Shown here piece after piece: positions 16,672 through 64,000 of a stretch of DNA of 64,000 nt (its first letter is position 1; the number at the start of each line of letters is the position of its first letter). The notes below the pieces were generated by a model. That model was given only the letters and a program-made list of their open reading frames with translations, was not told the DNA's origin and searched no databases. The position numbers were made by a program, and so were the translations under genes. Source of the stretch: Populus alba (taxonomy: Eukaryota > Streptophyta > Magnoliopsida > Malpighiales > Salicaceae); assembly GCF_005239225.2 (NCBI RefSeq), contig NC_133293.1:4712001-4776000 (forward strand), read 5' to 3'.

Positions 16672-16676
16672 GAAAC

Positions 16677-41300: not shown

Positions 41301-41432
41301 TGACACGATCAAAAGATTGATATTTTCTCCCAAGTGCAAGAGTGTTGAAGTAATAAATAATCTGGCAAGACCGGGGTTGAATCATAGGGAGGTTAATTGT
41401 ATAAATTATAGACAACAATAATACAACAATAA

Positions 41433-41464
<32 letters not shown>

Positions 41465-42102
41465 CTAGTACTAGTAGTACTAATAATAATAAAAATAAAG
41501 AAGTAAATGAGAACTTTGAGATGAAAGATTAATGTAAGGATTAAACAATAATAAAAACAAATGTCAAGGTTAGAGGATCTACTAATAGTATTTCAAACAA
41601 GCATAGTATAAACTTTTATTACTCAACTGGAAACCACACACAAAGGAGGTTCTAATCGAATAATTTATCATTAATAGCTCATTATAAATTGTTAACATGA
41701 TCATATTAATTATATTATTTAAGTAACACCAAACTTTTAAATATTGTAAGGAATTCATGATGCTAACTTACGTTAACAACAAATCAAGTTCCTTTCATAG
41801 CACATGTGTAGGTTATACCATACGGTTATGCTATGAGAGTGCCAAGCATTTGTTGTACCAAGTGTTATACAACACAAATCTAGATTAACCATTTAACAAG
41901 CAAGGTATTAAGAATTAGTAAGATAAAAAGATAAGACATGTTAATTGACATAACCAAAAGCTTGATGTCTTCTCTCAAGTGCAGGAGTGTCGAAGCAATA
42001 AATAACCCGGCAAGACCGGAGTCGAACCACAAAGAGGTTAATTGTATAAATTATAAATAACAATACAACATTAATAACAACAATAATAACAATAATAGTA
42101 AT

Positions 42103-46692: not shown

Positions 46693-47697
46693 TAGAAAAA
46701 AAAAAATTGAGGTCATTTGGACTTCTAGAACTCAAGATATGGGTTGAACACTGAATAGTGTCTGGGCTGTAGGACAGATTCAGACTTCTCCGTTGTTGCT
46801 ATAACTTGGACTAAAAAACGGCCTTCTTAGATCCTGGTGTCCTTATGAAAGTTGTAGGCCTATGTCTTACCAAATTTGTGTAAAAATTTGAGATCATTTG
46901 GACATCTAGAACTCGAGATATGACCTAATTACCAATCAGTGTTCCAGTTTGGACTGCATCAACATCTCTTTTCTAAGCTTCACCCTTCTTTATCTTCAAA
47001 ATTTCAGTAGTTGAATTCATCAATCAATCCTTTGATTTATGTGATAGGCCTGCATTTAAGATGAACATTTACCATATATTAAGGTATCTTATAGTATTAG
47101 ACTTGTTATTATAAAACATGCTTTAGTTAAGGAGTTATTGATACTTTAAGTACAAAATGATGATATAAAACCTTGATAAACATGCACTTTTAAGTACTAA
47201 TCATTAATATTAAACATTAAGGTCCATGTTGAGTTTACACCATACTTATTCTTACACCATTAGTGTAACCTTTTCACCTTGACATAATAAACTTAGCTAA
47301 ACATATTGAAGAAGAGTAACATAAATAATAAAACAAGAACATAAATAAGATACAAGTTAACTAAGTAAATGAAATGAAATGAAAAGTATAAACAAGATAT
47401 CAATGAAAGCAAAACTTAAGAATTACAAAAAAAATATAAAGAGAGAGAGCAAGAACAAGTTCTTGATCTGAACAACCAAGCCCCTAAATGCATGGCAAAT
47501 GCCTCCTTTTATAGGCCAAAATTTGGAACTATTGATTTGATGACTAATTGTTGAGTGGGTGGCCAACTCTTGACTTGGTGAAAATCCTTATCTTCTTGTC
47601 TGAATAAAACGTCATTTCAAGCATCAGAACTGGATCCACCTATACTTATGAAACCTATAGGAAATTATCTTAGCTTTCCAGGAAAAAAACATTGAGG

Positions 47698-47823
47698 TCT
47701 TCTAGAACTCAAGATATGGGCTGAACACTAAACAATGTTTGGGCTGCAAGACAAATTTGGTCTTCTAGAACTCAAGATATGGGCTGAACACTAAACAGTG
47801 TCTGGGCTGCAAGACAGATTTGG
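47698..47823. repeat. 63-bp tandem duplication in the 3' LTR
   Basis: Copies 47698-47760 and 47761-47823 both start TCTTCTAGAACTCAAGATAT. The other LTR copies have one unit, so this arose in this LTR. Confidence 0.9.
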
Positions 47824-48190
47824 ACTTCTCCGTTGTTGCTATAATTTGGACTTGAAAACGGCCTTTTTAAATCTTGAACTCAACATGAAAGTTATAGGCC
47901 TATGTCTTACCAAATTTGTCCTAAAATTTGAGGTCATTTGGACATCTATAACTTGAGATATGACTCGATTACTGAACAGTGTTCTAGTTTGGACTCCACC
48001 AACATCTCTTTTCTAAGTTTGGCCCTCTCTTTGTCCTTTCAATTTCAATACTTAAACTCATCAATCAATCCTTTTATTTATGTGATAGGCCTGCATTTAA
48101 TATGAATATTTACCATAAATTAAAGGTATCTTATATTATTAGGTATGTTATTATAAAACATGCTTTAGTTAAGGAGTTACTGATACTCTA

Positions 48191-49539
48191 AAGCGTTAAA
48201 ATAGAGAAACAATTTGCAAGTATCACAAAGCAAGGCATTCATCATTCAACTTCCATTAATCTATCCAGATAAACAAACTCTCATTAAATTTATATTACTG
48301 CTTCATACTTCTTAAACAAGATATTAATAAACCTTCTTTTTATGTGCTCAATATATGAAAACATAGATGATGGGGCTTTTGTTGGAAGAAAACAATATTA
48401 TGTTCAAATGTTTAAGGTGAACTTCCTTGGGTTGGGATTATTATTATTATTACTTTTTTTTTTTTCTTTTTATTTTTTTTTATTTTTTTATTTTTATTTT
48501 TATTTATATACACATACAACTTAAAACATAATGTATCTTTAACCCATGTAACGAGTTTTAGGCTAATGACTCCCATACCAGTTGGTCTTAGGGCATTAGG
48601 TGTTGAGACACCCCTACGAGCTTAACAACTCGGGTTGTAGATACTGATACGTAGATAGTGCAATGTTTGATTCCCTTAAGCTTTTCTCCTTAACCCATGT
48701 AACAAGCTTTGGGCCAATAACTCCCAAGTCAGTTGACTTTAGGGTATTAGGTGTTAAAACACCCCTTCGGGCTTAATTGCTTAGGTTAGGGAGGCTACGA
48801 AACCAAACTTATCTACGTTTTTATTATCATCATTTTTTTTTTTTATTTTTATTTTTTGCAAATTATATACTAACCCTTACCCTTAGTTGTTACCTTCAAC
48901 AAAAGAACATAAATAATGTAATAATCCAATGTGCAACCCACAATCATATGTTAAAGTGTGTGTGTGAAAATGAAGGTTTAATAATACTTGTTAAATGAGT
49001 ATATGAGCAGAATCAAGTGATAACAATGCGAGAGTTTGTAAACCTGAATATTTCAAGAAGTATTCTAATAGGCCTTGTTATGAATATTGCAAATAACCAT
49101 TAGAAAATTTTTACTATGATGCGTCTCAAGAATAATTCCTCTTTACTCTGCCATCCTAGTAATAACAGTTTTGCCAAATGGTTTTTTTTTTTAAAAACAA
49201 CAACAGTTAGTTCGTTATTTTTTTTTTTTATTTTTTTTTTTAACTACTACCCTCTCCCCCCAACCAAAACGAGACATTGTCCTCAATGTCCTAAGGTAGA
49301 AAGATAGAGTATAGAAGACATCACCTGAAACAGCGAACAATGACAAACCTGAAACACACTTAAACAAATATAAGAAGTAACAAAACAAAATACTATGCTA
49401 TTAATAAAACCAAAAGACACAAGGTTTCACAGATGAAGGCTCAAATCTAATCTAAGCTTTTTACGGCTTTCCTTAGTTGACCAATTTAGGCGACTCATGC
49501 AAGGATCAATGACAGGGATGAAAGATTGTAGTTGGTCAA
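48191..49539 (-). other. 3' internal noncoding part of the retrotransposon
   Basis: It is collinear with 63635-64000. It includes an imperfect direct repeat of about 100 bp, 48541-48640 and 48692-48790 (TAACCCATGTAACxAG, then GxATTAGGTGTT). At 49246-49264 a minus-strand purine tract (TTGGGGGGAGAGGG) follows GACATTGAGGACAATGTC, as often seen downstream of pol in this type of element. No gene is present apart from the shifted C-terminal tail of the LOG-like frame (to about 49427). Confidence 0.6.
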
Positions 49540-50079
49540 TCATTGTTCAGCAGTAGCAGCAGAGATTATGATTTGCCGTGCCGAAGATGTTAGAAATTCT
49601 TGTTCCACAGCTTGATCAAGGAAAGACAACAACTTGTCATAAAAACCATTAACATTTAACAAACCTATAGGTTTATGGTGAATGTGAAGTTGGGCCCAAG
49701 ATGAAATATGAAAGATCTCTTCCAATGTGCCCAGACCACCTGGTAAGGCAATGAAGACATCAGCATGGTTAAACATGGTATTCAGTCGGTCAGACATTGT
49801 TGGGACCTGTAGTTCCTCTCCAATTGTTTTTCCAATGATGTCCCCATTTGCTAAAGCTTTGGGGACAACCCCTAAAACTTGACTGCCTCCTAAAAATGCA
49901 CCCATTGAAACACCTCCCATTAACCCAAGGCTGCCTCCCCCATACACTAAATGAATCTTTCTCTCAGCTAGTACTTGACCAAGATGATTTGCTGATTCTA
50001 AAAACTCTTTTTCTTTCCCAGGGCTGGATCCACCGAAAACACAAATATTTCTTATGTGATGACTTGAGGAACCTGCCAT
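49540..50079 (-). CDS. LOG: LOG-family cytokinin-activating enzyme carried by the retrotransposon
   Basis: An intronless frame of 179 residues. LOG enzymes release active cytokinin bases from riboside 5'-monophosphates. Seen here: NICVFGGSSPGKEKEFLESA near the start, VYGGGSLGLMGGVSMGA (about 45-61), VLGVVPKAL, and the signature PGGLGTLEE (113-121), then SWAQLHIHHKPIGLLNVNGF. The usual RKAEM stretch before the signature reads RLNTM: Arg is kept but the Glu is not. The frame stops with SAATAEQ and TGA; directly after, another frame continues with an IDQLQSF-like tail to about 49427, so a one-base loss probably cut about 35 C-terminal residues. Plant LOG genes have several introns, so this is a processed copy. 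It lies between integrase and 3' LTR on the gag-pol strand. Confidence 0.85.
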   Translation of the reverse strand: MAGSSSHHIRNICVFGGSSPGKEKEFLESANHLGQVLAERKIHLVYGGGSLGLMGGVSMGAFLGGSQVLGVVPKALANGDIIGKTIGEELQVPTMSDRLNTMFNHADVFIALPGGLGTLEEIFHISSWAQLHIHHKPIGLLNVNGFYDKLLSFLDQAVEQEFLTSSARQIIISAATAEQ

Positions 50080-50310
50080 TTCTACACACTTCTATAGTTG
50101 TATGGGATGAGTAGAAATGAAGGGAAGGAAGAGAAGAATTTATAGATGAAAAAGTGAAAATGCAATCATACCACCTACATGTAGGCCAGCTGTAGTCTCA
50201 CACTGTCTCTCTGTATTTATTTATTTTGACAAAGCATGTATGTACAGGTAGTTGTGATTGTGGCTCACATCTTCCCTTGGTTTTACGTCTAAGAACGGCT
50301 TAAACTCCCT

Positions 50311-50859
50311 CTATGGGTCGGGGATAGGCTTCCCATCCAGTTTTCTTAAAAACTGGCAAACAGGGTCTTTTTTAGTCAGATTCCCAAGACTAAGTCGATC
50401 ATGTTCTTTATGGAATTGTGGCCATAAATCATGAATTACACGATGCACATCTCCACTAGGATGCGTCTCAAGGGTCACTAAAAGATTATCTAAAGACCCC
50501 TTACTCAGGCCATCCTTAATGAATTGTATTTTATCTTCACGGTTTACAGATACCATTCCTAAAGAACGACATGTCGCATTACAAGTCCATCTGGCACATC
50601 TGTGACAGACTTTCAGTCGTTTTGCACGACGTTTCTTTGCAAAAGTGCTTTTACCTGTTCCAGGCATGTGTAAAATGAAAGAATTGGAGGACTCACCTGA
50701 TAATCGGACCTTTGCTTCAATCAGCCAACGAATATCTTCAGGAATTCCATGGTTCATTAACAACCTCAATCTTTCACACCTAGCACGGTAAATTTTTGTA
50801 ATCGCATTCTGAGGTAGAGCAGGAAAATACTTTTTCAATTTTTCAAGAGTGGTGTCCAT
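50311..50859 (-). CDS. Basic cysteine-rich protein of the retrotransposon, unrecognised
   Basis: 182 residues from the Met in MDTTLEKLKKYF (an upstream in-frame ATG at 50919 would add 20 hydrophobic residues). The middle has GTGKSTF, the basic patch KKRRAKRLK (about 75-83) and then C85-x2-C88-x4-C93-x3-C97 (CHRCARWTCNATC), followed by KIQFIKDGLSKG. A basic patch before a small Cys cluster suggests nucleic-acid binding. The layout recalls the small cysteine-rich proteins of carlaviruses, some of which suppress silencing; this is an inference from pattern only. It stands 213 bp after the integrase stop and 231 bp before the LOG-like frame, on the same strand. Confidence 0.6.
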   Translation of the reverse strand: MDTTLEKLKKYFPALPQNAITKIYRARCERLRLLMNHGIPEDIRWLIEAKVRLSGESSNSFILHMPGTGKSTFAKKRRAKRLKVCHRCARWTCNATCRSLGMVSVNREDKIQFIKDGLSKGSLDNLLVTLETHPSGDVHRVIHDLWPQFHKEHDRLSLGNLTKKDPVCQFLRKLDGKPIPDP

Positions 50860-51071: not shown

Positions 51072-51430
51072 TCAATCTTTATATACAGGATCACTCAATT
51101 CAGTAGAGTCATTTTCAACTGAAAAATTATCAAAATAAACTTTCAATCGATGCCCATTTACCTTGAAAACATTGCCATTCTTTGGATTCTCAATATCACA
51201 GGCCCCATATGGATACACATGTTTCACAATAAAAGGACCGCTCCATCTTGATCTTAGTTTTCCAGGAAATAAATGGAGTCGAGAATTATAAAGCAAGACT
51301 TTTTGACCAACATTGAATGTTTTTCTCAGTATTTTCTTGTCATGAAACTCTTTGAGTCTTGCTTTATGAATTCTTGAATTGTCATATGCATCATTTCTAA
51401 TTTCCTCAAGCTCATTTATTTGCAATTTTC
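51072..51430 (-). pseudogene. Integrase C-terminal part, separated by the LINE
   Basis: It resumes the integrase frame after the LINE: LQINELEEIRNDAYDNS, then KILRKTFNVGQKVLLYNSRL and LRSRWSGPFIVKHV, the typical C-terminal integrase core of Ty3/gypsy. It ends at a stop at 51072-51074. An ATG supplied by LINE 3' sequence (51476) gives an accidental longer frame. Confidence 0.85.
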
Positions 51431-51630
51431 TTTTTTTTTGGTAAGCTGACTTATGTATAAAAAGAAAATGATACAAAGAATATAATGGGCATACCCAAGA
51501 TTTACAATGAGGACAGAAACGAAAACCAACAAATGGCTACAGGCTAGCCACAACAAAACAAAAACTTGGACCAACTAGATATCCTAGGAGTACAAAAACA
51601 ACCAGCTAAACATCAAATTAAGAGTCCATG

Positions 51631-52493
51631 TTATTGACCCTCCAAAGTCTTTGGATCCTTATGTTTCCATCTGTTTGTTGAACATTCCTTATCAAAACAA
51701 GCTTTATCGCGAATGATACATTCGATTTGATCAAAAACCAAATTCGAAGCTTTAGACACATCTGCAAAGATCCTTGCATTGCGTTCTTGCCAGATACAAT
51801 ACACTGTAGCTGCGAAACCCAGTTTACGAGAAAAGTTGATGAAACTTTTTCCATGCCAAGAGACAGTGGCCAATCGAATCCATTCATCCAAGCTTTTTGT
51901 CATTCTTGGAATGTCGCATCTATCACAAACATTCCACCATAATGCTTTCGCAAAGGAGCATTCGAAGAACAAGTGGTTGTGATCTTCATTATTGCAGAGA
52001 CAGAGTGAGCACCTATTGGGACCATGAATACCAAACCGATGAAGTCTATCCTGCGTTGAGAGTTTCCGTTGGATAGCCACCCAAAGAAGAAATGCATGTC
52101 TTGGGACAGCATTCTTGAACCACACGATGTCATGCCAATCAACCATTTGATGATGAATTCTTAGTTGTTCCCAAGCTACTTTGACTGAGAAACTCTGATT
52201 TGGCGAATCCAACCAAACAATCTCATCCTTTTGCCCCTTAGGAGTAGAGGTGGGAGGAATAGCTTTTAAAATGGGGTGCCAGCCAATAGCATGAGTGATA
52301 GGAATTCTCCATTCTAAGTTATTAATCAGCACGTTCACTCTCGCGTTGTGTTCCATACCTGAATCATAGATGAAACGTTCACCGTAGGTATCAGCGAGCG
52401 GGCTGTGAGGATGCCAATTGTCAAACCATAGAGAGGTTGTCATTCCATCTCCGATGACGTGCTTCATCTTCGGCCATGCTAAGGATCTGAGCT
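51631..52493 (-). pseudogene. LINE ORF2, C-terminal part after a frameshift
   Basis: Continues ORF2 in another frame: KLRSLAWPKMKHVIGDG, SLWFDNWHPHSPL, then a zinc-binding RT-associated domain (WFKNAVPRHAFLLWVA, CSLCLCNNEDHNHLFFECSF, with Cys/His ligands). The overlap with the preceding frame near 52494-52515 indicates a one-base indel. The stop is at 51631. Confidence 0.85.
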
Positions 52494-55298
52494 TTAGAAT
52501 CTTTCCCAAGCCCAAGAGCAGCTTCCTGGCGCCTTGATTGTCCAGAAATTCCTACCTCGCAAGAGATTGGATCTGATCCAAGTAGACCAGATTGAGCCAT
52601 CTGAGTCATTGCACAAGTTCCAAATATGTTTCAACAAGGCAATCTTGTTCCATTCTGCTATCCTTTTTATGCCTAGCCCCCCCTCCTTTTTTGGAAGACA
52701 TACCTGATCCCAAGCCACTTTAGCCCTGGTAGTGCTCATATCTGAACCTGACCAAAGAAAGGATCTCATAATTTGCTCAACATTTTTCACTACTTCCCCA
52801 GGTAATAGGAATAGAGATGCCCAATAGACCTGGATGGAGAATAAGACTGAGTTAATCAGTTGTACTCGCCCTGCGAAAGAGAGTGTTCTACAGGTCCAAT
52901 GTCGAACTTTGGCGGTAATTCGATCCACGAGGCCCTTACAATTAACAGCCTTTAGTCTAGACGAGATAAGAGGCACTCCCAAATATTTCATAGGAAGCTC
53001 CCCCTCTCTAAACCCAAGAATACTGATAATCTGTTCCCTCTCAGCTCCTAACGAACCGCTCAAGAAGATGTCACTTTTGTTTGGATTTGGATATAAACCT
53101 GATAGAACCTGAAACTCTGTGAGTACATTTTTGATCATACGGATTGAATGTACATCCCCTTTGCTGAATATCATCAAGTCGTCGGCAAAGCAAAGATGAG
53201 AAATGCTGTCCTTCTTGCATCTCCAGTGGAACTTGAAGTTTTGGTTGGCACTCATATTGCAGAACAGCCCTGACAGGATTTCCATGCATAGGACAAACAA
53301 ATATGGAGATAATGGATCACCTTGTCTCAGCCCTCTCCCCCCTTGGAAGTAACCCGCAAGTTCACCGTTGACGTTGATTGAGAATTGACATGATGTAACA
53401 CAAACCATGATCCAATCAATGACTGTTCTAGGGAATCCCATTTTTATCAACGTAGCATCAACGAAATCCCACCGAACAGAGTCATAAGCCTTCATCAGGT
53501 CTACTTTCATAGCACAACGAGCAGGACCCGTAGTTGTGTGATAGCCTTTCATTAGTTCCTGAGACAAAAGAATATTGTCGCTGATTCTCCGTCCAGAGAT
53601 AAAAGCTGTTTGATACGGACCTACTAAGGATGGTAAAACAACTTTCATTCTCCCAGCTAGAATCTTCGCGATGCATTTGTATATTGTATTGCAGCAAGAT
53701 ATAGGACGAAAATCTGTCAACCTCGTAGGATTAGCAACTTTAGGGATAAGGGAAATGGATGTAGCATTCATTTCTTTAAGCATTCTACGAGTCTGGAAGA
53801 AGGAGCTAACAGCGTTGATTACATCTTCCCCCACTATGTGCCACATTCTTTTGAAGAAACCTGCGTTGAAGCCATCTGGACCAGGAGCTTTGTTGTTTTT
53901 CAAACTAAACATAGCATGCTTAATCTCCTCTCTTGTGACATCTTGTGCTAGTACATGCTGTTGAGTTGCCGACAATTTGTAAATAATTGCCGATTGCATC
54001 ACTTCCTCGTTCAGGACCCTAGGCATCTGTTTCACTCCCAATACACGCTGGAAGTATGCAATTACTTCTGATTTGACTGCCTCGTGTCCTTCAGCGACTT
54101 CTCCATCCTCCCTTGTAACCGAGAGAAGCTTATTTCTATTCTGTCTACCATTTACTGATTTGTGAAAGTAGCTAGTATTCTGATCCCCCAAGCTAAGCCA
54201 TTGTATCCTTGCCTTTTGTCTGAAAAAACACTCTTCCGCCCTGACAGTAGAAGCATAGTTACGAACAGCATCTCTTTCTCGCATACGCAATGTTGGATCC
54301 TCAGGCGCTGTATGCAGAGCTTGTTGAGCCCTATCCATGTGATCTTTTGCATCTTTGACTCTATCGGAAATATTGGAGAAGTGAGTCTTATTGAAATGTT
54401 TAAGTTCCTGCTTTAGCTTCCTTAGTTTGCAACACAGTTGATACATTGGACACCCTCCTGAATGCTGATCCCATACTTTCTTCACCAAGGGCATGAACTC
54501 GTCATGATCCATCCACATATCGAAGAATCTGAATGGTTTCTTTATGTTCTGAACATTGCCAGTGACTTTTACCACCATGGGAGAATGATCTGACATACCA
54601 GCAGGCAAGAATCTCGCTTCCGACAATGGGAAGCGCATATTCCACTTCTCATTCACAAGCACTCTATCTAGTTTCCGCATAATCATATTCTCAGGACATT
54701 GGTTCGTCCAAGTATAATGCATACCTGAATACCGAAGATCATCCACTTTCGCTTCACGTATACATGTTTCCAATCTGTCCATATGACCAGCCCACGTAGA
54801 AGACCCCCCTAACCTCTCTGACTGGTTGCGGATAGCATTAAAGTCGCCCATAAGAATCCATGGGGTTGACTCCCATCCATCACTACGACTCACAATATCA
54901 GACCATAAAGCCTCACGTACAGATGCATTATTGTCTCCGTAAATGATTGAAGTATTAAAACAGATATTGGTAGCTAATATCATGACAGAAACATGGATAG
55001 CCTGGTCTGACATTCCCAGAACATCCACCTTCACCAAATCAGCATTCCAACAAACCCAAATACGACCACGACAAGAGAAATCATAATTATACAAGAATGA
55101 CCAATTACGCAGAAGAAGTTGCGAAACATTATCTTTATTCCTGTCTCTAACCCGAGTTTCAACCAAACCAAAAAAAACCATCCTCTCTTGATGGATGAGC
55201 TGACGCAGTTCTGAATGCTTTATGGGATCATTCAAACCTCTAACATTCCAACATCCAATAATCATAGGGAAATAGAGAGGAGTACCAAACATCAACAC
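52494..55298 (-). CDS. LINE ORF2, endonuclease and reverse transcriptase
   Basis: 934 residues. The N-terminal APE-type endonuclease has IIGCWNVRGLND, the catalytic Glu in LVETRV, WILMGDFNAI, and SDHSPMV. The RT has NKAPGPDGFNAGFF, FRPISCCNTIYK, KVDLMKAYDSVRWDF, GLRQGDPLSPYLFV and the catalytic CFADDLMIF. The enzyme nicks target DNA and primes reverse transcription of its RNA. The more likely start is Met12 (MIIGCWNVRG). The frame is broken at its C-terminal end (52494), cutting the protein before the zinc-binding domain. Confidence 0.93.
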   Translation of the reverse strand: MLMFGTPLYFPMIIGCWNVRGLNDPIKHSELRQLIHQERMVFFGLVETRVRDRNKDNVSQLLLRNWSFLYNYDFSCRGRIWVCWNADLVKVDVLGMSDQAIHVSVMILATNICFNTSIIYGDNNASVREALWSDIVSRSDGWESTPWILMGDFNAIRNQSERLGGSSTWAGHMDRLETCIREAKVDDLRYSGMHYTWTNQCPENMIMRKLDRVLVNEKWNMRFPLSEARFLPAGMSDHSPMVVKVTGNVQNIKKPFRFFDMWMDHDEFMPLVKKVWDQHSGGCPMYQLCCKLRKLKQELKHFNKTHFSNISDRVKDAKDHMDRAQQALHTAPEDPTLRMRERDAVRNYASTVRAEECFFRQKARIQWLSLGDQNTSYFHKSVNGRQNRNKLLSVTREDGEVAEGHEAVKSEVIAYFQRVLGVKQMPRVLNEEVMQSAIIYKLSATQQHVLAQDVTREEIKHAMFSLKNNKAPGPDGFNAGFFKRMWHIVGEDVINAVSSFFQTRRMLKEMNATSISLIPKVANPTRLTDFRPISCCNTIYKCIAKILAGRMKVVLPSLVGPYQTAFISGRRISDNILLSQELMKGYHTTTGPARCAMKVDLMKAYDSVRWDFVDATLIKMGFPRTVIDWIMVCVTSCQFSINVNGELAGYFQGGRGLRQGDPLSPYLFVLCMEILSGLFCNMSANQNFKFHWRCKKDSISHLCFADDLMIFSKGDVHSIRMIKNVLTEFQVLSGLYPNPNKSDIFLSGSLGAEREQIISILGFREGELPMKYLGVPLISSRLKAVNCKGLVDRITAKVRHWTCRTLSFAGRVQLINSVLFSIQVYWASLFLLPGEVVKNVEQIMRSFLWSGSDMSTTRAKVAWDQVCLPKKEGGLGIKRIAEWNKIALLKHIWNLCNDSDGSIWSTWIRSNLLRGRNFWTIKAPGSCSWAWERF

Positions 55299-55303
55299 AC
55301 GGA

Positions 55304-56476
55304 TTACCTTGACTTGCCCCCCCTCGAGGAGCCAGATTTCTTACTCTTCTTTGAAAAGCCTGGAGAACCCGTTTTCTTTTTTTCTAGAGAGTCTCTAGCC
55401 TTGCTAGCTAACTGATTAATAAAAGTTTCCCCGTCAGAAGAAATCGGACTTTGCGGACTTGTTGGGATCAGTGACGTCGACTCCTTATCATCATCTTCCT
55501 TACCTGTACCACCTCCCATAACTCCAATATCAACATTCACCTCATGACTAACAGGGTTCATGGTTGCATTACAGATGGTTGAACTTTGATCTAAAGAAGT
55601 ACATGCATCCCCTTCCTCCGGCACCATGTCTGCTCGTAAGCTCTTCAAAATAAGAGGAGAGGTAGGATTTTCATCTTCATAACAACCAACATTGGGCACA
55701 TCTAATGTCGCAGCTTCATTCGTATTACAATCAGCACTCTGTAAAGCAGATGCTAAACAACCATTCTCATTACAATTAAGCTCTTTAGATGCCAAACAAT
55801 CATTCTCACCAATCGTAACACCCTTATTTCGTTTACCAACTACCTGCCATTGAAGCTGATTCTGCTTATTATCTGCATGTTTAGAGTTCACAGCTCCTAT
55901 TTTCCTTTTGCCCTCTGCCCCCATTGTACGATCATCAACTTTACTGGTAGCACATATCGCTGTGGTATGTCCAAAGACATTGCAATTATTGCACCTTGAA
56001 GGAATCCATTCATAATCCGCTGAAATTGTTATGAATAACCCATTTGGACAGCGAAGGTCGTATTCCTTCACCAGCGTTTTCGAAGCTTCTATCTCAACGC
56101 AAACTCTTGCGTAGCTAAGCCTTTTACGCAACAATGTAGTAAGGTCAGCATGAAGGGGGACCCCAATAGCACTCGCTACACAACTCAGCCCCTTAACAGT
56201 CCAATACTCGAGAGGAACATTGTAGAGCTTAACCCATACCGGAACTCTATCCAGATCATCTTTCAAAAATTGCATGTTCGGATGCCAACGTTTAAGCACC
56301 AAAGGTCTGTTGGCCATGTGCCATGGGGCTCTCTCCAGAACATTAGTGGCGCGATCGACAGAATCAAAGGTGAAGAGAAAGAATCCATTATCAGAAGATA
56401 AAACTTCGGATAGACCGTGGGAGCCCCATATTCTTTTAGCAATAGAATTAAAATTGTGTCCTGATGGTATGTGTTC
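55304..56476 (-). CDS. LINE ORF1, 5'-truncated, fused in frame to integrase
   Basis: About 390 residues, starting inside a DUF4283 domain ([35 protein letters not shown]) followed by a CCHC knuckle [14 protein letters not shown], the RNA-binding ORF1 of plant L1 elements, and a Ser/Lys-rich tail. The real ORF1 start is missing. The frame is open into the integrase upstream across the target duplication, so it has no start of its own at the N-terminal end. Confidence 0.88.
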
Positions 56477-57544
56477 TATTTGCAATTTTCGCAGCTGACT
56501 AGCATCATCAATGTTTGAATTGAAAGCTTTAATAGCCCAATAAGCTTTATGTTCAATTTCCACAGGCAAGTGACAAGGTTTTCCATAGACTAGTCTATAA
56601 GGTGACATACCTAATGATGTTTTATATGCAGTTCGATAAGCCCAAAGTGTATCATTAAGTCTTAAAGACCAGTCTTTCCGATTAGGGTTCACAGTTTTCT
56701 CCAAGATCTGTTTGATCTCCCTATTAGCAAGCTCTACTTGTCCACTTGTCTGAGGGTGATAAGGGGTGGCAACTTTGTGTGTGATTCCATATTTCTTCAT
56801 TAAAGAAGCAAATGGCTTGTTGCAGAAATGTGTTCCACCATCACTTATTATGGCTCGAGGAATTCCAAATCGACTCAAAATATTGTCTTTCAAAAACTTT
56901 ATCACTGTTTTGTGATCATTGTGTCGACTTGGAATTGCCTCTATCCATTTTGAAACATAATCTACTGCGACTAATATGTACACGAAACCAAATGATGGAG
57001 GAAATGGACCCATGAAATCTATACCCCAACAGTCAAAGATCTCAATGACAAGAATAGGATTTAAAGGCATCATGTGATGTTTTGAAATAGATCCCAACTT
57101 TTGACAATTTTCACAAGTCTTGTAGAATGCATGTGAGTCTTTGAACATGGTGGGCCAATAAAATCCACTTTGTAAGATTTTTGCAGTTGTCTTTCTTGAT
57201 GAGAAATGACCCCCACATGCCTCAGAATGACAAAATTTAATGACACTACTTACCTCATTGTCAGGAATGCATCTTCGAAATATTTGATCAGAACAATATT
57301 TGAATAAATAAGGGTCATCCCAATAAAAGTTCTTCACTTCGTTCAAGAACTTTCTTTTGTCTTGGGTACTCCAATGAGCTGGCAATTGTCCTGAAACAAG
57401 AAAATTAACAATATTAGGAAACCAAGGCATCGTAGAAACGGAAAATAAAGATTCATCGGGAAAGTAGTCATCGATTGGTGTGATGTCAGATTTTGAAGAA
57501 AGAAACTCGAGCCTACCAAGGCCACTTTTAGGTTCACCAATCAA
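56477..57544 (-). pseudogene. Integrase, N-terminal and catalytic parts
   Basis: The zinc-binding region has [14 protein letters not shown] then CENCQK. The catalytic core has WGIDFMGPF (first Asp), [11 protein letters not shown] (second Asp) and [16 protein letters not shown] (Glu), and ends at ...RKLQI where the LINE entered. Upstream the frame begins in an extra segment (57510-57672) that parts it from RNase H, so it is not continuous with the gag-pol frame. Confidence 0.9.
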
Positions 57545-57726: not shown

Positions 57727-60700
57727 TTATTGAAGTAACAAAATCCACCGCACCAATCTAGCCTTAGAATCTTTCTTAGAAAGAAGATATTTCAATGCTG
57801 CATGATCACTAAAAACAACAACAGGTGAGCCAACAAGATAAGATCTGAATTTATCACAAGCAAATACTACTGCAAGTAATTCTTTTTCAGTGGTGGTGTA
57901 ATTCATTTGAGCACTATTTAAAGTTTTACTTGCATAGTAAATCACATAAGGTTTCTTATCTTTTCTTTGTCCCAAGACAGCACCCACGACATAATCACTA
58001 GCGTCACACATTATTTCAAAAGGTAATGACCAATCAGGAGGTTGAATGACAGGAGCAGAAGTAAGCAAGTTTTTAAGTTTAACAAAGGCTTCTTCACAAT
58101 GTTCAGTCCATTCAAAAATATTATCCTTTGTTAGAAGGTTACTCAAGGGCTTAGATATTACACTAAAATCTTTGATGAACCTTCTGTAAAAACCAGCATG
58201 TCCTAAGAATGATCTAACATCTTTAACAGATTTTGGTGTTGGTAAGTTGGCAATTAACTCGATTTTAGATTTGTCAACCTCAATTTCTTTCGATGAAACA
58301 ATGTGACCAAGTACAATGCCGTTTGTTACCATAAAGTGACATTTTTCCCAATTCAATACAAGATTCTTCTCTTCACACCTGCTCAAAACCTTTTCTAAGT
58401 TAGTCAAACAATCATCAAATGAATCACCAAAAACAGAAAAATCATCCATAAAAATTTCAAGAAAACATTCAACCATATCACTGAATATGCTAAGCATGCA
58501 TCTTTGAAACGTGGCTGGTGCATTACATAATCCAAAAGGCATCCTTCGATATGCAAAAGTACCAAATGGACATGTGAAAGTAGTCTTCTCTTGATCTTCC
58601 AATGCAATTTCAATTTGATTGTAACCTGAATAGCCATCTAGGAAACAATAAAATTCATGACCTGCAACTCTTTCTAGGATTTGATCCATGAAAGGTAAAG
58701 GGAAATGATCTTTTCTAGTCATAGAATTAAGTTTCCTATAGTCAATGCACATGCGCCAACCAGTAACAATCCTAGTTGGAATTAACTCATTTTTCTCATT
58801 CGTTATCACAGTGACTCCAGACTTTTTGGGTACAACTTGGGTAGGACTAACCCATTTCCTGTCAGAAATAGGATAAATGATTCCATTATCTAGAAGCTTA
58901 ATGACTTCATTTTTCACTACTTCTTTCATATTAGGATTAAGCCTTCGTTGCATTTCTCTAGAGGGTTTAGCATTTTCCTCCAAATAAATCCTGTGTGTGC
59001 AAATCAAAGGGCTAATTCCTTTTATGTCAGCTATGGTCCATCCTAATGTATTTTTGTGCATTTTCAAAATCTGTAATAACTTACCTTCTTGATGTGCATT
59101 AAGTTTGGAAGAGATTATTACCGGAAAAGTTTCATTTTCTCCCAAAAATGAGTATTTGAGATTAAATGGTAACGGCTTCAATTCAGGTTTTGGTGGTTGA
59201 ACACTTGAAGGTATGAGCTCAATTGATCGTGGTGGCAATTCTTCAATTTGTGGTCTCCAATTGCATGCCTTTGATTCCTGAAAGTAGATCATTTGCAAAT
59301 CATCAGATTCATCAATCTCAGTTTCACTGGAAGTGGTTTGAAATTGATCATGAACTAATTTTTCAATAAAGTCCACTTCCTGTAAATCATTATCATCTTC
59401 AGGTTGCTTGTAAATGTTGAAAATATTCATCTCCAATGTCATGTTTCCAAATGATAGCTTCATCAGTCCATTCTTACAATTAATCAATGCATTAAAAGTG
59501 GCAAGAAATGGACATCCTAAAATGACAGGAATTGAATTACATGCTTCAACAGGTTGTGTATCCAAGACAATAAAATCTACAGGGTAAATGAATTTATCAA
59601 CTTGTACTAACACATCCTCAGCTATTCCTCTAGGCACTTTTACAGATCTATCGGCAAGTAAAAGAGTTACAGAGGTTGGTTTTAACTCACCTAGATTGAG
59701 ACTTTGAAAGACTGAATATGGAAGTAAATTCACACTAGCTCCAAGATCAAGTAAGGCTCTTTCAATTTTATGTTCTCCAATAAAGCAAGAAATTGTAGGA
59801 CAACCAGGGTCTTTATATTTCAAAGCATTATTGTTCTGAAGAATGACACTTACTTGTTCGGCTAAAAAGGCTTTCTTTTTCACATTCAGTTTTCTCTTCA
59901 CAGTGCACAAATCTTTCAAAAATTTAGCATAGGAAGGAACCTGTTTAATAGCATCCAACAAAGGTATATTGATCTTTACCTGTTTGAAAATTTCAAAGAT
60001 TTCAGGGTTGTGATTGACTTTCCTTTGTTTGGTCATGGCATGAGGAAATGGAAGTACTGGCGGGGAATCAGTCTTTTCTTTGCAATGTTCAGGTTCAACC
60101 CCTTCCTTACCCTCAGAGATAGACTCATCATCTTTCTCACAAGGTTCAAGAATGGGTTTTTCAATAACCTTACCACTACGAAGAGTGATGACTGATTTAA
60201 CTTGATCCATGTGTTGGCTTCCAGAACCACTTGCATTTGCATTGTATTGCCCCTTTGGATTTTGTTGTGGTTGAGATGGAAACTTACCTTTCTCTTGGAA
60301 ACTGAGAGCAGATGTTAATTTTGCAAGAGCATCTTTAAAATCTGTCATGCTTTGAGCAAGTTGAGTGTTGATTGTCTCCTGCTTTTCAATGAATGCATGT
60401 AATGTTTCCTCAAAATTTCTTCTAGGAGGTGGAGCATAAGGAGGTGCATATCCATGAGAATTTTGAAAATTATGGTGTGCTTGAAACGGTGGCTGTGAAG
60501 TTTGTGCATTGTTGCTATCACTCTTCCAACTGAAATTTGGGTGATTTCTCCAACCAGGGTTGTACTTTTGTGAGTATGGGTTATGGTTGGGTCTTTGGAA
60601 ACTGTTTAAAGCATGGGCTTGTTCATGGAGGCATTCCTTAAAAGAAGGCAAAGTTGGACAATCATTTGTTGAATGTTCATTGGTTTCACATATTTGACAC

Positions 60701-61548
60701 ACAATGTCTTGAACAGATTTTAATTGACCACTCTTTTTCAATTCTAGTGCCTCGACTTTTCTAGCTAAAGATGCAAACTTGGCTTGGAGGTCATGATCTT
60801 CCCTAAGGTTGTGCATACCTACACTAGATGTATGAGGTTGAGTTTTACTTGGTGCCTCATAAGTACCTGTGGTATCCCAATTTTGAGCATTTTCGGCTAG
60901 CAAGTCTAGGTACTCCATTGCTTCATTAGGGTCTTTATCTTCAAAAGTTCCATTGCACATCAATTCAACCATTTGCCTATCTCTAGGTGTTAAACCTTCA
61001 TAAAAATGTGAAACCAATCTCCATGTTTCAAAACCATGATGTGGGCAAGTATTAAGCAAATCTCGATACCTATCCCAACATTGGTAAAATGTTTCTCCTG
61101 GTTTTTGAGTGAAAGTGATGATTTGTCTTTTGAAAGAGTTTGTTCTGTGAGATGGAAAAAACTTCTTTAAAAATTGTTGTTGCATATCATCCCAAGCACG
61201 AATGGATCCTGGTCTCAAATTTTGTAGCCATGTTTTAGCTTTATCTTTTAATGAAAAAGGAAAAAGCTTTAATCTGATAGTGTTCATGCTACAATTTGAG
61301 TCATTATAGGTATTACAGACCTCCTCAAATTCCCTTAAATGCAAGTATGGATTTTCTAGGTCTAAGCCATGAAAAGAAGGTAAAAGTTGAATAATGCATG
61401 GCTTAAAATTAAAATGAGATGCATCAGGAGGGAAAACTATGCATGAGGGTGCACTTGTTCTTGTGGGATTCATATGGTCTCTAAGTGTTCTCATACGGTT
61501 ATTCTCATTATTCTCATTATGAAGTGATTGATTATCTTCTTCGGCCAT
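57727..61548 (-). CDS. Retrotransposon gag-protease-RT-RNase H polyprotein
   Basis: 1273 residues counted from MAEEDNQSLHN at 61548; an upstream ATG (61674) only adds a hydrophobic, unlikely leader. Gag is at about 60-230 (FHGLDLENPYLHLREF, WDDMQQQFLKKFFP), the knuckle CQICETNEHSTNDC near 283, protease active site LLDLGASVNLLP near 600, RT with CFLDGYSGYNQI and FMDDFSVFG near 1033, and RNase H from IMCDASDYVVGAVLG (about 1179) with SDHAALKYLL. The gag type is that of the Athila branch. The frame is intact until a TAA at 57727-57729 at the end of RNase H, which looks like a nonsense mutation because sense sequence resumes directly (ITIKDKKGTKNVVADHLSRL). Confidence 0.93.
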   Translation of the reverse strand: MAEEDNQSLHNENNENNRMRTLRDHMNPTRTSAPSCIVFPPDASHFNFKPCIIQLLPSFHGLDLENPYLHLREFEEVCNTYNDSNCSMNTIRLKLFPFSLKDKAKTWLQNLRPGSIRAWDDMQQQFLKKFFPSHRTNSFKRQIITFTQKPGETFYQCWDRYRDLLNTCPHHGFETWRLVSHFYEGLTPRDRQMVELMCNGTFEDKDPNEAMEYLDLLAENAQNWDTTGTYEAPSKTQPHTSSVGMHNLREDHDLQAKFASLARKVEALELKKSGQLKSVQDIVCQICETNEHSTNDCPTLPSFKECLHEQAHALNSFQRPNHNPYSQKYNPGWRNHPNFSWKSDSNNAQTSQPPFQAHHNFQNSHGYAPPYAPPPRRNFEETLHAFIEKQETINTQLAQSMTDFKDALAKLTSALSFQEKGKFPSQPQQNPKGQYNANASGSGSQHMDQVKSVITLRSGKVIEKPILEPCEKDDESISEGKEGVEPEHCKEKTDSPPVLPFPHAMTKQRKVNHNPEIFEIFKQVKINIPLLDAIKQVPSYAKFLKDLCTVKRKLNVKKKAFLAEQVSVILQNNNALKYKDPGCPTISCFIGEHKIERALLDLGASVNLLPYSVFQSLNLGELKPTSVTLLLADRSVKVPRGIAEDVLVQVDKFIYPVDFIVLDTQPVEACNSIPVILGCPFLATFNALINCKNGLMKLSFGNMTLEMNIFNIYKQPEDDNDLQEVDFIEKLVHDQFQTTSSETEIDESDDLQMIYFQESKACNWRPQIEELPPRSIELIPSSVQPPKPELKPLPFNLKYSFLGENETFPVIISSKLNAHQEGKLLQILKMHKNTLGWTIADIKGISPLICTHRIYLEENAKPSREMQRRLNPNMKEVVKNEVIKLLDNGIIYPISDRKWVSPTQVVPKKSGVTVITNEKNELIPTRIVTGWRMCIDYRKLNSMTRKDHFPLPFMDQILERVAGHEFYCFLDGYSGYNQIEIALEDQEKTTFTCPFGTFAYRRMPFGLCNAPATFQRCMLSIFSDMVECFLEIFMDDFSVFGDSFDDCLTNLEKVLSRCEEKNLVLNWEKCHFMVTNGIVLGHIVSSKEIEVDKSKIELIANLPTPKSVKDVRSFLGHAGFYRRFIKDFSVISKPLSNLLTKDNIFEWTEHCEEAFVKLKNLLTSAPVIQPPDWSLPFEIMCDASDYVVGAVLGQRKDKKPYVIYYASKTLNSAQMNYTTTEKELLAVVFACDKFRSYLVGSPVVVFSDHAALKYLLSKKDSKARLVRWILLLQ

Positions 61549-61756
61549 ATTTTCTGAAAATAATGAGGATACCCTACAAAGTCGACCACTTAATGTACGT
61601 GACCAAACTCGCATGCACGTGTAAAAAGAGAATAAAAGGAAGAAAAGAAAATAGAAGAAAAAGAAACAAAACAAAACAAAGAAAACAAAAGTTAGATAAA
61701 ATGAAAAGTGAAAAGAGAAAATAAATTAAATATTATAATTTATACAAGAATTTACC

Positions 61757-61780: not shown

Positions 61781-63604
61781 TGACACGACCAAAAGCTTGA
61801 TGTCTTTTCCCAAGTGCAGGAGTGTCGAAGTAATAAATAACCCGGCAAGACCGGGGTCGAACCACAGAGAGGTTAATTGTATAAATTATAAATAACAATA
61901 CAACAACAACAACAACAACAATAACAACAACAACAACAACAATAATAATAATTATAATACTCAGTACGTGGCGTTGTTACACCTGAGAATGATCCAAAAG
62001 ATCGGGTCACAGGTTTCCAGCCTATATACTGAGTTTATGAAAAGATCAAAGGGATATATTACAGAATGTAAATAACAACAACAACAATAATAATAAAAAT
62101 AATAGTAGTAGTAGTAGTAGTAGTAATAGAAGTAGATGAAGAAATTAATGAGAACTTTGAGTTGGAAGATTAATGTAAGGATTAAACAATGATAAAAACG
62201 AATGTCAAGGTTAGAGGATCTACTAATGATACTTCAAACAAGTATAATATAAACTCTTATTACTCAATTGGAAACCACACATAAAGGAGGTTCCAATCAG
62301 ATTATAAATTGTTAACATGATTACATTAGTTGTCTTATTCGAATAAAGCTAATACTTGTAAATGTTGGCAGGCATTCATGATTATAACTTATGTTAACAA
62401 CAAATCAAGTCCCTTTCATAGCTCAGGTGTCGGTTATACCATACAGTATGGGCTATGAAAGTACCAAGTATTTGTTGTACCAAGTATTATACAACATAAA
62501 TCTCGATTAACCATTTAACAAGCAAAGTATTAAAAGTGAACAAGATAACAAATATAAAACATGTTAGTATCCAACGTTAAGGTCCATGTTAAGTTTATAT
62601 TATACTTATTCTTACACCATTAGTGTACCCTTTTCACCTTGACATAATTAACTTAGCTAAACATAATGAAAGAAAGAAACATAAATAGACAAGATAAGAA
62701 CATAAATGAGAAAGAAGTTAACTAAGTAAAAGAAAGGAAATGAAGTGCATAAACTTGATATTAATGAAAGAAAAACATAAGCAATACAAAGAGAGAAAGC
62801 AAGAGCATGATCTTGATCTGGAAACCAAGATGCTTTAATACATGGTAAGTGCCTCCTTTTATAGGCCAAAATTTAGAACTATTGATTTGTTGACTAATTG
62901 ATGAGTGGGTGGCCACATCTTGACTTTGGTGACAATCCTTATCTTCTTGTCTGAACAAAACGTCATTGCTAACATCATAATTTGCCTAGAATCCTCAGGA
63001 ATGTTCTAGGAAATTGTCTCATCTTTCCAACAAAAAAAAAGATGAGGTCATTTGGACTTCTAGAACTCAAGATATGGGCTGAACACTAAATAGTGTCTGG
63101 GCTGCAGGACAGCTTCGGACTTCTTCATTGTTCCTTCAATTTGGACTTCAAAACGGCCTTCTTAGATCTTGGGCTCCTCATGAAAGTTGTAGGCCTTTGT
63201 CTTACCTTTCCATCCATATAAAATGGACCTAAATCCGAGATCTAGAGCTCCAGATATGATCCAATTACCGAGCAATGTTCCGGTTTGGACTGCACCGACA
63301 TCTCTTTTCTAAGTTTGGCCATCTCTTTGTCCTTTAACTTTCAATACTTAAACTCATCAATCAATCCTTTTATTTATGTGATCGGCCTGCATTTAAGATG
63401 AGCATTTACCATAAATTAAGGTATCTTATAATATCAAAGTTGTTATTATAAAACATGCTTTAGTTAAGGAGTTATTGATACTTCAAGTGCAAAATGATGA
63501 TATAAAACCTTGATAAACATGCACTTTTAAGTACTAATCAGATACTTCAAGTGCAAAATGATGACATAAAACCTTGATAAAAATGCACTTTTAAGTACTA
63601 ATCA
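61781..63604 (-). mobile_element. 5' LTR of the Athila-like element
   Basis: 1824 bp, TG...CA: on the plus strand it runs from TGACACGACCAAAAGC to AAGTACTAATCA. It contains CAA/AAT microsatellites, an extra segment of about 110 bp at roughly 61957-62068 absent from the other copies, and a 64-bp duplication of its outer U3 end (63477-63540 and 63541-63604). The PBS lies on one side and a purine tract plus 3'-type internal sequence on the other. Confidence 0.9.
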
Positions 63605-64000
63605 CATCCCCCAACCAGCTTATTACTAGTCCCTAGTAATCAAAGCATTAAAATAGAAAAACAATTTGCAAATTCCACAAAGCAAGGCATTCATCATTCA
63701 ACTTCCATTAATCTATCCAGATAAACAAACTCTCATTAAATTCATATATCTGCTCAATACCTCTTAAACAAGATATTAATAAACCTTTCTTTTATGCTCA
63801 AAATATCAACATATAGTTATGGGGCTTTACTTTGAAGAAAAACAAATTTTTGTTCTAATATTTTAAGGTTAACTTCCTTGGGTTGAGATTATTATCTTTT
63901 TTATTTTTTTAATATATACATATAACTTAAAACACAATGCATCTTTAACCCATGTAACGAGCTTTCAGCTAATGACTCCCAGATCAGTTGGTCTTAGGGC
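63605..64000 (-). other. 3' internal part of a second, neighbouring element
   Basis: It starts CATCCCCCAACC (minus: GGTTGGGGGATG, a polypurine tract touching the LTR) and from about 63635 is collinear with 48190-48600 of the main element. It is cut by the window edge. Confidence 0.85.

What the first reader, a model, noticed from the sequence alone, without database searches (positions are those of the whole stretch)
49540..50859. LTR retrotransposon carrying a LOG-like cytokinin-activation gene beside a cysteine-rich protein gene
Between integrase and 3' LTR, on the gag-pol strand and within about 1.3 kb, are two intronless frames not part of the usual gag-pol: a LOG-family enzyme with PGGLGTLEE and a basic protein with a CX2C/CX3C cluster. 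LOG genes normally have several introns, so a processed copy was captured. If copies of this family elsewhere keep both frames, the element would carry a growth-hormone gene with a nucleic-acid-binding partner, which would be an unusual cargo module.
Basis: partly seen in the sequence, partly recalled or inferred. Interest (0 to 1): 0.93.

Follow-up and report, generated by a model that had tools for sequence, protein, structure and literature searches.

The report
Retrotransposon carrying hormone and viral-like genes
A plant jumping-gene family carries, in many copies, two extra genes - one resembling a plant enzyme that switches on a growth hormone, the other resembling a small zinc-binding protein of plant RNA viruses - and both look protected by natural selection while the element spreads; a short version that has lost its own copying enzymes still carries them.

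Summary
Window 49540-50079 (-) is a LOG-family frame; 50311-50859 (-) is a basic Cys-rich frame (CRP) passing Pfam cut-offs for plant-RNA-virus nucleic-acid-binding proteins. They lie between integrase and 3' LTR of an Athila-like Ty3/gypsy element; this copy is dead (LINE in integrase, LOG frameshifted). 150 copies of each frame were scored from ~1,700 first-look candidates each. 28 of 28 fetched LOG loci have CRP sequence upstream; 24 of 30 CRP-sampled loci have LOG, 6 share one LOG deletion. Cross-sampled dN/dS is 0.29 (LOG) and 0.26 (CRP); variants shared between copies give omega 0.2-0.3, private ones about 1: selection while spreading, drift after landing. Nine of 20 long loci lack RT, RNase H and integrase core but keep gag (at least part), protease, CRP and LOG; in eight the LTR pair differs by 0.2-0.6%. 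LOG in Gypsy elements is in print (Citrus, Populus; PMC9289625); ten searches did not show the viral-like partner, the pair, or its retention without pol. Function is inferred.

The parts
49540..50079 (-). LOG-family frame, 179 aa; broken by a frameshift near its end in this copy (the last ~38 codons continue in another frame to 49427)
   Evidence: 137 of 150 scored copies are listed with a 221-aa frame, 7 of them with a stop read through
50311..50859 (-). CRP: basic Cys-rich frame, 182 aa, Viral_NABP/Carla_C4-like (basic patch then CX2C-X4-C-X3-C)
50080..50310 (-). CRP-LOG spacer; stops in all three frames; TATA-like box at 50139-50144, starting 65 nt before the LOG ATG
   Evidence: TATAWA kept in 50 of 51 copies, but the spacer as a whole is conserved
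51072..51430 (-). integrase C-terminal part, downstream of the LINE insertion
   Evidence: collinear with integrase in other copies
51431..56476 (-). LINE (L1-type) inserted in integrase; 14-bp duplication at 51417-51430 and 56477-56490
56477..57544 (-). integrase N-terminal and core part (H2C2, rve)
   Evidence: domains on ORF 55304-57544
57727..61674 (-). gag-protease-RT-RNase H frame, 1315 aa; stops and a frame change follow before integrase
   Evidence: the Pfam protease hit is below its cut-off, 21.3 of 24.3 bits
61758..61774 (-). primer binding site TGGCGCCGTTGCCGGGG
   Evidence: found within 2 mismatches in 10 of the 20 long loci
61783..64000 (-). 5' LTR, running beyond the window end
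   Evidence: 96% to the 3' LTR of L015 over 61783-63540 and 80% over 63541-64000
49250..49263 (-). polypurine tract TTGGGGGGAGAGGG
   Evidence: same G-rich motif in the 5 copies printed
48184..49241 (-). start of 3' LTR; beyond 48184 the sequence switches to an older related LTR
   Evidence: 95% to the L015 3' LTR, then 78-85%

Best explanation
This is one damaged copy of a high-copy Athila-like Ty3/gypsy family whose 3' extra-gene slot holds two separate genes: CRP, a basic zinc-finger-like protein related to nucleic-acid-binding proteins of plant flexiviruses, and LOG, a homologue of cytokinin-riboside-monophosphate phosphoribohydrolases. SHOWN (in the copies sampled): both frames recur together at near-fixed spacing; both were under purifying selection while copies multiplied and drift after insertion; a derivative class that lost RT, RNase H and the integrase core still carries gag, protease, CRP and LOG and has inserted recently. 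INFERRED: gag and protease of the short class package its RNA, an autonomous partner lends RT and integrase in trans, and module exchange by template switching keeps CRP/LOG similar across classes. INFERRED: CRP and LOG are made from their own messages (every frame between integrase, CRP and LOG is closed), LOG perhaps from an internal TATA promoter or a spliced RNA. INFERRED FUNCTION: LOG frees active cytokinin and keeps the cell and its descendants dividing; CRP binds nucleic acid and damps RNA silencing or acts as a transcription regulator, as flexivirus CRPs do. Together they would raise the chance that new copies are made in dividing, heritable tissue.
For: Multi-copy. Pairing: 28 of 28; 57 of 150 CRP hits have a top-150 LOG hit 780-825 bp downstream; 13 expected if ranks were independent among ~1700 linked copies. 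Selection: cross-ascertained dN/dS LOG 0.29 (bootstrap 0.22-0.37, 23 loci), CRP 0.26 (0.21-0.34, 26 loci); shared variants LOG 17 S/11 N, CRP 24.5 S/19.5 N versus private 16.5/45.5 and 14/51; against three mutation models p is 6e-6 to 4e-4 for shared variants and 0.40-1.00 for private ones; the true frame gives the lowest shared omega of six frames in both genes. Pol-less class: 9 of 20 long loci, LTR K 0.002-0.006 in the 8 of them measured, LOG intact in 9 of 9 (that set was picked by LOG similarity) and CRP in 4 of 9. Motifs: LOG E120 in 50 of 51 and E121 in 51 of 51 copies; CRP Cys 85/88/93/97 in 54-56 of 56. CRP family match: 6 of 6 copies scanned pass both Pfam cut-offs, one (L002) only just. 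Viral CRPs as silencing suppressors and, for chrysanthemum virus B p12, a transcription factor inducing hyperplasia: PMC12172455, sections 3 and 5 read.
Against: No transcript, protein or enzyme data. LOG is dispensable for spread: 6 of 30 CRP-sampled copies belong to a LOG-deleted type with one shared junction. Only 9 of 30 CRP-sampled and 10 of 28 LOG-sampled copies have both frames intact by my criterion. CRP has stop variants shared by 2 or more copies (3 in the LOG-sampled set; codons 52, 91, 146 and 169 in 3-4 copies each), so CRP-dead lineages may spread too, unless the stops recur by mutation. CRP's Cys spacing (CX2C-X4-C-X3-C) is not the CX2CX12CX4C of a carlavirus CRP, and the Pfam match is modest. 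The CRP TATA-like box is not conserved (31 of 54). By tblastn-derived codons CRP dN/dS was 0.38, not 0.26. Conservation of the cargo in the pol-less class may be partly borrowed by recombination: on a weakly resolved CRP tree pol-less and LOG-minus copies are scattered, autonomous ones cluster but not as one clade. The NCBI equivalog model for cytokinin-specific LOG scores 113.9 against a cut-off of 300.
Confidence: 0.6

Rival explanations
1. Passive passengers: a host LOG cDNA and a viral fragment were caught once and are copied only because they lie between integrase and LTR; no function.
For: LOG-minus copies multiply too; many copies are broken; CRP has shared stops; private variants look neutral.
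Against: Shared variants have omega 0.2-0.3, lowest in the true frame; 0 shared LOG stops in the CRP-sampled set; the pol-less class lost RT, RNase H and integrase core but not CRP-LOG.
Confidence: 0.07
2. LOG acts as a general nucleotide 5'-monophosphate phosphoribohydrolase (nucleotide-pool or damaged-nucleotide clearance helping reverse transcription), not as a cytokinin enzyme.
For: In NCBIfam only the broad TIGR00730 model passes its cut-off; the cytokinin-specific model does not; a weak hit to the nucleosidase PpnN model.
Against: The best solved relatives are the Arabidopsis proteins At2g37210 and At5g11950 (that these are LOG3 and LOG8 is recalled); the signature motif is kept.
Confidence: 0.15
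3. CRP is not virus-derived but a home-grown protein of the env slot of the Athila lineage that converged on a basic patch plus Cys cluster; it acts as an RNA chaperone or packaging factor.
For: Cys spacing differs from the carlavirus finger printed in PMC10141686; E-values about 1e-6 to 1e-5; no viral contig relative found by sequence.
Against: Two viral Pfam families pass curated cut-offs in 6 of 6 copies, one over 83 residues; 0 of 8 shuffles match anything.
Confidence: 0.2
4. The constraint is on DNA or RNA (promoter, packaging or splicing signals inside CRP/LOG), not on the proteins.
For: Parts of the CRP-LOG spacer are strongly conserved, e.g. spacer 41-80 and 181-200.
Against: Constraint follows codon structure: the true frame has the lowest shared omega in both genes.
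Confidence: 0.05

Closest known systems
LOG/YgdH-carrying Gypsy elements of Citrus and Populus (Steinbauerova 2011 cited in PMC9289625)
   Same: A LONELY GUY-family domain in Gypsy-type consensus sequences of Citrus sinensis, C. clementina and, with a looser filter, P. trichocarpa (PMC9289625 section 12 read). That the 2011 paper called its elements Athila-like with LOGL4 similarity is recalled; the paper is not held.
   Different: PMC9289625's main text has 0 occurrences of NABP, carlavirus or 'nucleic acid binding', and sections 3, 12 and 17, which I read, give no selection data on LOG and no pol-less class keeping it. Its supplements were not read.
Orchid Gypsy elements with an AlkB m6A demethylase ORF (PMC9289625)
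   Same: A Gypsy element with an added ORF kept through replication, of a protein type also found in plant RNA viruses (abstract and sections 3, 12, 17 read).
   Different: A different enzyme, related by that paper to cellular RNA demethylases, and one gene, not a pair.
Carlavirus/allexivirus/mandarivirus cysteine-rich proteins (CRP/NABP)
   Same: Pfam Viral_NABP and Carla_C4; basic patch just before a Cys cluster.
   Different: Different Cys spacing from the carlavirus finger in PMC10141686; chromosomal retrotransposon context.
Non-autonomous GAG-only LTR elements (TR-GAG; recalled, paper not held)
   Same: LTRs, PBS, polypurine tract and gag kept; RT and integrase core lost.
   Different: Keeps protease, an integrase remnant and two cargo genes as well.
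Athila env-like 3' extra ORFs
   Same: Sense ORF between pol and 3' LTR (PMC7264820, part 1 of 3 read).
   Different: The two frames found in that slot are a LOG-family enzyme and a zinc-finger-like protein; no env-like frame was recognised.

Membership tests
Athila clade of Ty3/gypsy | No second (archaeal-type) RNase H domain, unlike Tat (PMC6317226, passages) | tested here: met
   Pfam finds one RT/RNase H set; only ~180 bp between the RNase H frame and the integrase frame
Athila clade of Ty3/gypsy | Clusters with Athila on an RT-RH-INT tree | not tested
   No plant reference elements were fetched
Athila clade of Ty3/gypsy | Sense extra ORFs between pol and 3' LTR | tested here: met
Athila clade of Ty3/gypsy | tRNA-Asp-type primer site (recalled) | tested here: inconclusive
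   PBS TGGCGCCGTTGCCGGGG found; its match to tRNA-Asp is recalled, not computed
LOG (cytokinin riboside 5'-monophosphate phosphoribohydrolase) | LOG/lysine-decarboxylase-like family and PGGxGTxxE motif | tested here: met
   PF03641, TIGR00730 above cut-off; motif at residue 113
LOG (cytokinin riboside 5'-monophosphate phosphoribohydrolase) | NCBI equivalog NF058542 cut-off (300 bits) | tested here: not met
   113.9 bits; whether plant LOGs reach it was not checked
LOG (cytokinin riboside 5'-monophosphate phosphoribohydrolase) | Enzymatic activity | not testable with these tools
   -
Carlavirus-type CRP/NABP | Pfam Carla_C4 / Viral_NABP gathering score | tested here: met
   6 of 6 copies scanned; L002 only just
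Carlavirus-type CRP/NABP | Basic NLS-like run adjacent to the finger | tested here: met
   KKRR 75-78, then C85
Carlavirus-type CRP/NABP | CX2CX12CX4C finger (PMC10141686) | tested here: not met
   CX2C-X4-C-X3-C
Carlavirus-type CRP/NABP | RNA-silencing suppression | not testable with these tools
   -
Non-autonomous GAG-bearing LTR element (TR-GAG-like) | LTRs, PBS and gag present, RT and integrase core absent | tested here: met
   9 of 20 long loci show no RT/RH and no integrase core; PBS in 8 of the 9, gag at least partly in 9 of 9
Non-autonomous GAG-bearing LTR element (TR-GAG-like) | No other coding sequence (definition recalled) | tested here: not met
   protease, CRP and LOG also present

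The most novel reading that the evidence does not exclude
A plant retrotransposon family evolved a two-gene host-manipulation module, one gene of host type (cytokinin activation) and one of RNA-virus type (zinc-finger silencing suppressor/transcription regulator), and the module is so useful that a short, RT-less derivative keeps it instead of its own polymerase and spreads by making its host cell lineage divide and go unsilenced.
Probability: 0.3. Interest if true: 0.92.

Novelty: new variant of a known kind. Interest (0 to 1): 0.7.

Why it matters
Plant Athila-like elements have long been known to carry 'extra ORFs' of unknown use. Here both extra ORFs have recognisable homologues, recent copies, and a signature of selection at the element level, so the question 'what do extra ORFs do for a plant retrotransposon?' becomes testable: one is a homologue of a hormone-activating enzyme, the other resembles virus proteins known to suppress silencing. 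It would also be a case of an LTR element keeping host- and virus-type genes in the slot where related elements keep an env-like gene, and of a non-autonomous element that keeps cargo rather than polymerase. It suggests, too, that LOG gene counts in genomes with this family may be inflated by element copies (inference, not tested).

Tried and rejected
Rejected: chance ORFs (homology); passive cargo; my first LOG dN/dS of 0.16 as evidence, because the loci had been picked by LOG protein similarity (a self-picked sample gives 0.16 for LOG and also 0.16 for CRP), so I resampled by the other gene. A first cross-sampled LOG value of 0.59 came from only the 19 loci lacking a top-150 LOG partner and from HSPs running past frameshifts; with 11 loci added to restore the proportion and with nucleotide alignment it became 0.29. 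CRP in the LOG-sampled set went from 0.38 (tblastn codons) to 0.26 (nucleotide alignment). Dropped before the counts: 6 LOG-minus loci and 1 with only 92 LOG codons (30 to 23); for CRP, 2 of 28 with under 100 codons. The 19 loci were taken by script at every fifth rank of the 93; the 11 were picked by eye at roughly even steps among the 57. Both lists are themselves the best 150 by protein score, so old or decayed copies are under-represented.

Tried without result: viral-contig scans for both proteins (no relative); phage records; solved structures for CRP (nothing significant); PHROGs (one hit at E 0.1); single-sequence fold of CRP (mean pLDDT 39, not used for a fold search); internal TATA promoters (LOG box kept in 50 of 51 but the spacer is conserved generally; CRP box 31 of 54): suggestive for LOG, not supported for CRP. 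The CRP tree is weakly resolved (8 of 53 inner branches starred) and did not let me order LOG loss or capture. Dating the window copy by its own LTRs: rejected, its 3' LTR is chimeric. Literature: 10 of 10 paper searches used; the statement that CRP+LOG was not found in print rests on these open-access searches only.
Full report
WHAT IS THERE. The window lies in an unnamed 416-Mb genome of 96 contigs; the large contigs seen among hits are C1 to C19, with C1 at 54.8 Mb, which to me suggests Populus (recalled karyotype; not established by a tool). On the minus strand, in order: 5' LTR (61783 to beyond the window end), primer site, one 1315-aa gag-protease-RT-RNase H frame (57727-61674), integrase (57544 down to 51072) split by a LINE with a 14-bp duplication, CRP (50859-50311), LOG (50079-49540), a polypurine tract (49250-49263) and a 3' LTR starting near 49241. 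No second RNase H domain was found and there is little room for one between the RNase H and integrase frames, so by the criterion in PMC6317226 (passages) it is Athila-like, not Tat; I did not build an RT tree. All three frames in the gaps integrase-CRP and CRP-LOG contain stops, so CRP and LOG are separate genes and not read-through parts of pol.

THIS COPY IS DEAD. pol is broken between RNase H and integrase, integrase carries the LINE, LOG is frameshifted near its end, and the 3' LTR switches after about 1 kb to an older LTR type. CRP is intact. Intact LOG frames exist elsewhere: of 150 scored copies 137 are listed with a 221-aa frame (7 of these with a stop read through) and 8 of 150 have a stop inside (counted by hand).

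WHAT THE TWO PROTEINS ARE. LOG: PF03641 3.6e-36, TIGR00730 162 bits (cut-off 96), best solved relatives At2g37210 and At5g11950. The stricter cytokinin equivalog model is not reached (113.9 of 300 bits). CRP: PF05515 Viral_NABP and PF01623 Carla_C4 above their curated cut-offs in the window copy and in five further copies, L002 by 1.3 and 0.7 bits only; 0 of 8 shuffles match any family and the reversed sequence has one unrelated sub-cut-off hit. Its run KKRR lies six residues before Cys 85, and Cys 85/88/93/97 are kept in 54-56 of 56 copies. The finger spacing differs from the carlavirus CX2CX12CX4C quoted in PMC10141686 (passages), so I call it NABP-like, not a carlavirus CRP. PMC12172455 (sections 3 and 5 read) describes flexivirus CRPs as silencing suppressors and, for chrysanthemum virus B, a transcription factor inducing hyperplasia.

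MULTI-COPY AND PAIRED. The LOG frame has 1691 first-look candidates, 150 scored; CRP 1719, 150 scored; the spacer 1205, 40 scored. First-look counts are not copy counts. Of the 150 CRP hits, 57 have a top-150 LOG hit 780-825 bp downstream on the same strand, a lower bound because both lists are cut at 150. Of 28 LOG loci fetched (the 8 best, and 20 that I picked over the list), 28 have CRP sequence upstream (2 only residues 120-182) and 27 have integrase sequence upstream, in L014 beyond an LTR piece. In the 20 long loci the LTR begins at +838 to +844 from the LOG start in 20 of 20. From the CRP side, a sample of about 1 in 5 of the list (19 of the 93 without a top-150 LOG partner, by script; 11 of the 57 with one, by eye) has LOG sequence in 24 of 30; the other 6 are one LOG-deleted type with a shared junction at spacer position ~95.

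SELECTION. Because each list was ranked by protein similarity, I tested each gene only in loci sampled by the other. LOG in 23 CRP-sampled loci: dN/dS 0.29 (bootstrap 0.22-0.37). CRP in 26 LOG-sampled loci: 0.26 (0.21-0.34); with tblastn codons it had been 0.38. Variants seen in two or more copies: LOG 17 S/11 N, CRP 24.5 S/19.5 N; variants in one copy: 16.5/45.5 and 14/51 (Fisher p 0.002 and 0.0005 on rounded counts). Against three mutation models shared variants give omega 0.21-0.25 (LOG) and 0.24-0.30 (CRP), p between 6e-6 and 4e-4; private ones 0.88-1.35, p 0.40-1.00. As a control, the six reading frames of the same alignments were run: the true frame has the lowest shared omega in both genes (0.20 and 0.22); next is a reverse-strand frame (0.30 and 0.42); the other four give 0.58-1.53 (LOG) and 0.74-1.25 (CRP). 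So the proteins mattered while copies were multiplying, and stopped mattering once inserted, as expected of genes working for the element rather than for the host. Against this, CRP has 3 stop variants shared by two or more copies in the LOG-sampled set, and stops at codons 52, 91, 146 and 169 occur in 3-4 loci each; I read these as recurrent deamination, which I did not test; they could mark CRP-dead lineages.

A SHORT CLASS KEEPS THE PAIR. Nine of 20 long loci (L009, L010, L015-L019, L021, L026) show no RT or RNase H and only residues ~19-155 and a C-terminal piece of integrase (70-79% identity for the first piece), yet have gag (partial in L010 and L017), protease, CRP and LOG; eight show a primer site, so that their whole internal region is in view. 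Eight others carry RT/RH; L012, L014 and L028 fit neither class cleanly. Within the short class shared-variant omega is gag 0.07, protease 0.05, CRP 0.06, LOG 0.20, integrase remnant 0.46 from only 3 shared variants; the integrase C-terminal piece has 0 S and 2 N. These loci were picked by LOG, so the LOG value is biased low; CRP is intact in only 4 of the 9. LTR pairs of the eight loci where both LTRs were in view differ by K 0.002-0.006, gaps left out: roughly 0.1-1.2 million years for recalled rates of 1.3e-8 to 2.5e-9. Between classes integrase differs most (dS 0.42), then protease, CRP and gag (0.17, 0.15, 0.14), LOG least (0.06) (LOG being the gene by which the loci were picked). On a weakly resolved CRP tree (8 of 53 inner branches starred) pol-less and LOG-minus copies are scattered and autonomous ones cluster without forming one clade. 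Module exchange by recombination is the likely reading, but poor resolution is not excluded; either way the cargo's constraint in the short class may be partly borrowed.

HOW IT MOST LIKELY WORKS. Shown: paired, selected, recently mobile. Inferred: separate expression (a TATA box 65 nt before LOG is kept in 50 of 51 copies but ranks only 35th of 224 six-mers in a conserved spacer; the CRP one is kept in 31 of 54); trans-mobilisation of the short class; LOG raising active cytokinin; CRP binding nucleic acid and damping silencing or steering transcription. I put about 0.95 on a conserved two-gene cargo, about 0.8 on CRP being homologous to viral NABPs, and about 0.3 on the joint host-manipulation model.

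KNOWN OR NEW. LOG/YgdH in Citrus and Populus Gypsy elements is in print (PMC9289625 section 12, citing Steinbauerova 2011, not held). That paper's main text has no NABP or carlavirus; its supplements were not read. Chiba 2011 (PMC3136472, passages) reports a flexivirus replicase-like sequence and other RNA-virus sequences in plant genomes; no NABP carried by a retrotransposon appeared in the passages shown. PMC11728184 and PMC11963269 (passages) discuss extra ORFs, with no cytokinin or carlavirus in either text. In 10 open-access searches I found no description of the pair or of a pol-less class that keeps it. Hence: new variant of a known kind.

Noticed in passing
window 51431-56476: L1-type LINE (DUF4283, endonuclease, RT, zf-RVT) inserted inside integrase, 14-bp target-site duplication GAAAATTGCAAATA, A-rich tail, coding region in several ORF pieces.
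   Followed up: yes
L031, L034, L035, L038, L044, L046: LOG-minus type: the CRP spacer is joined near position 95 directly to sequence inside the LOG C-terminal tail, same junction in all six with about 5 bp overlap; deletion or ancestral empty state not resolved by the CRP tree.
   Followed up: partly
window 15115-16679, 41303-42097, 46698-48187: Older LTR pieces of the same family (78-93% to a young LTR); the window copy's 3' LTR switches into one at about 48184.
   Followed up: partly
L014: Composite locus: pol-less class integrase remnant and a partial CRP about 4.6-5.4 kb upstream, then an LTR piece, then a second CRP with LOG.
   Followed up: no
L009, L011, L012: L009 and L011: a further gag leader region follows the 3' LTR (tandem LTR arrangement). 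L012: its LTRs are flanked by the two halves of another copy's integrase, i.e. an element nested in a related one.
   Followed up: no
CRP codons 52, 91, 146, 169 in several loci: Same-codon stops in 3-4 copies each, possibly cytosine deamination of methylated copies, possibly shared ancestry.
   Followed up: partly
window 24842-26141: Near-perfect (99%) tandem duplication with a ~430-bp unit.
   Followed up: no
window 28745-29176: Weak similarity (29%) to Ty3/gypsy RT-RNase H, another degraded retroelement.
   Followed up: no
CRP-LOG spacer (50082-50310), positions 41-80 in element sense: Almost invariant across 51 copies (mean mismatch 0.001-0.007) although noncoding; possibly a regulatory or RNA signal.
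   Followed up: no
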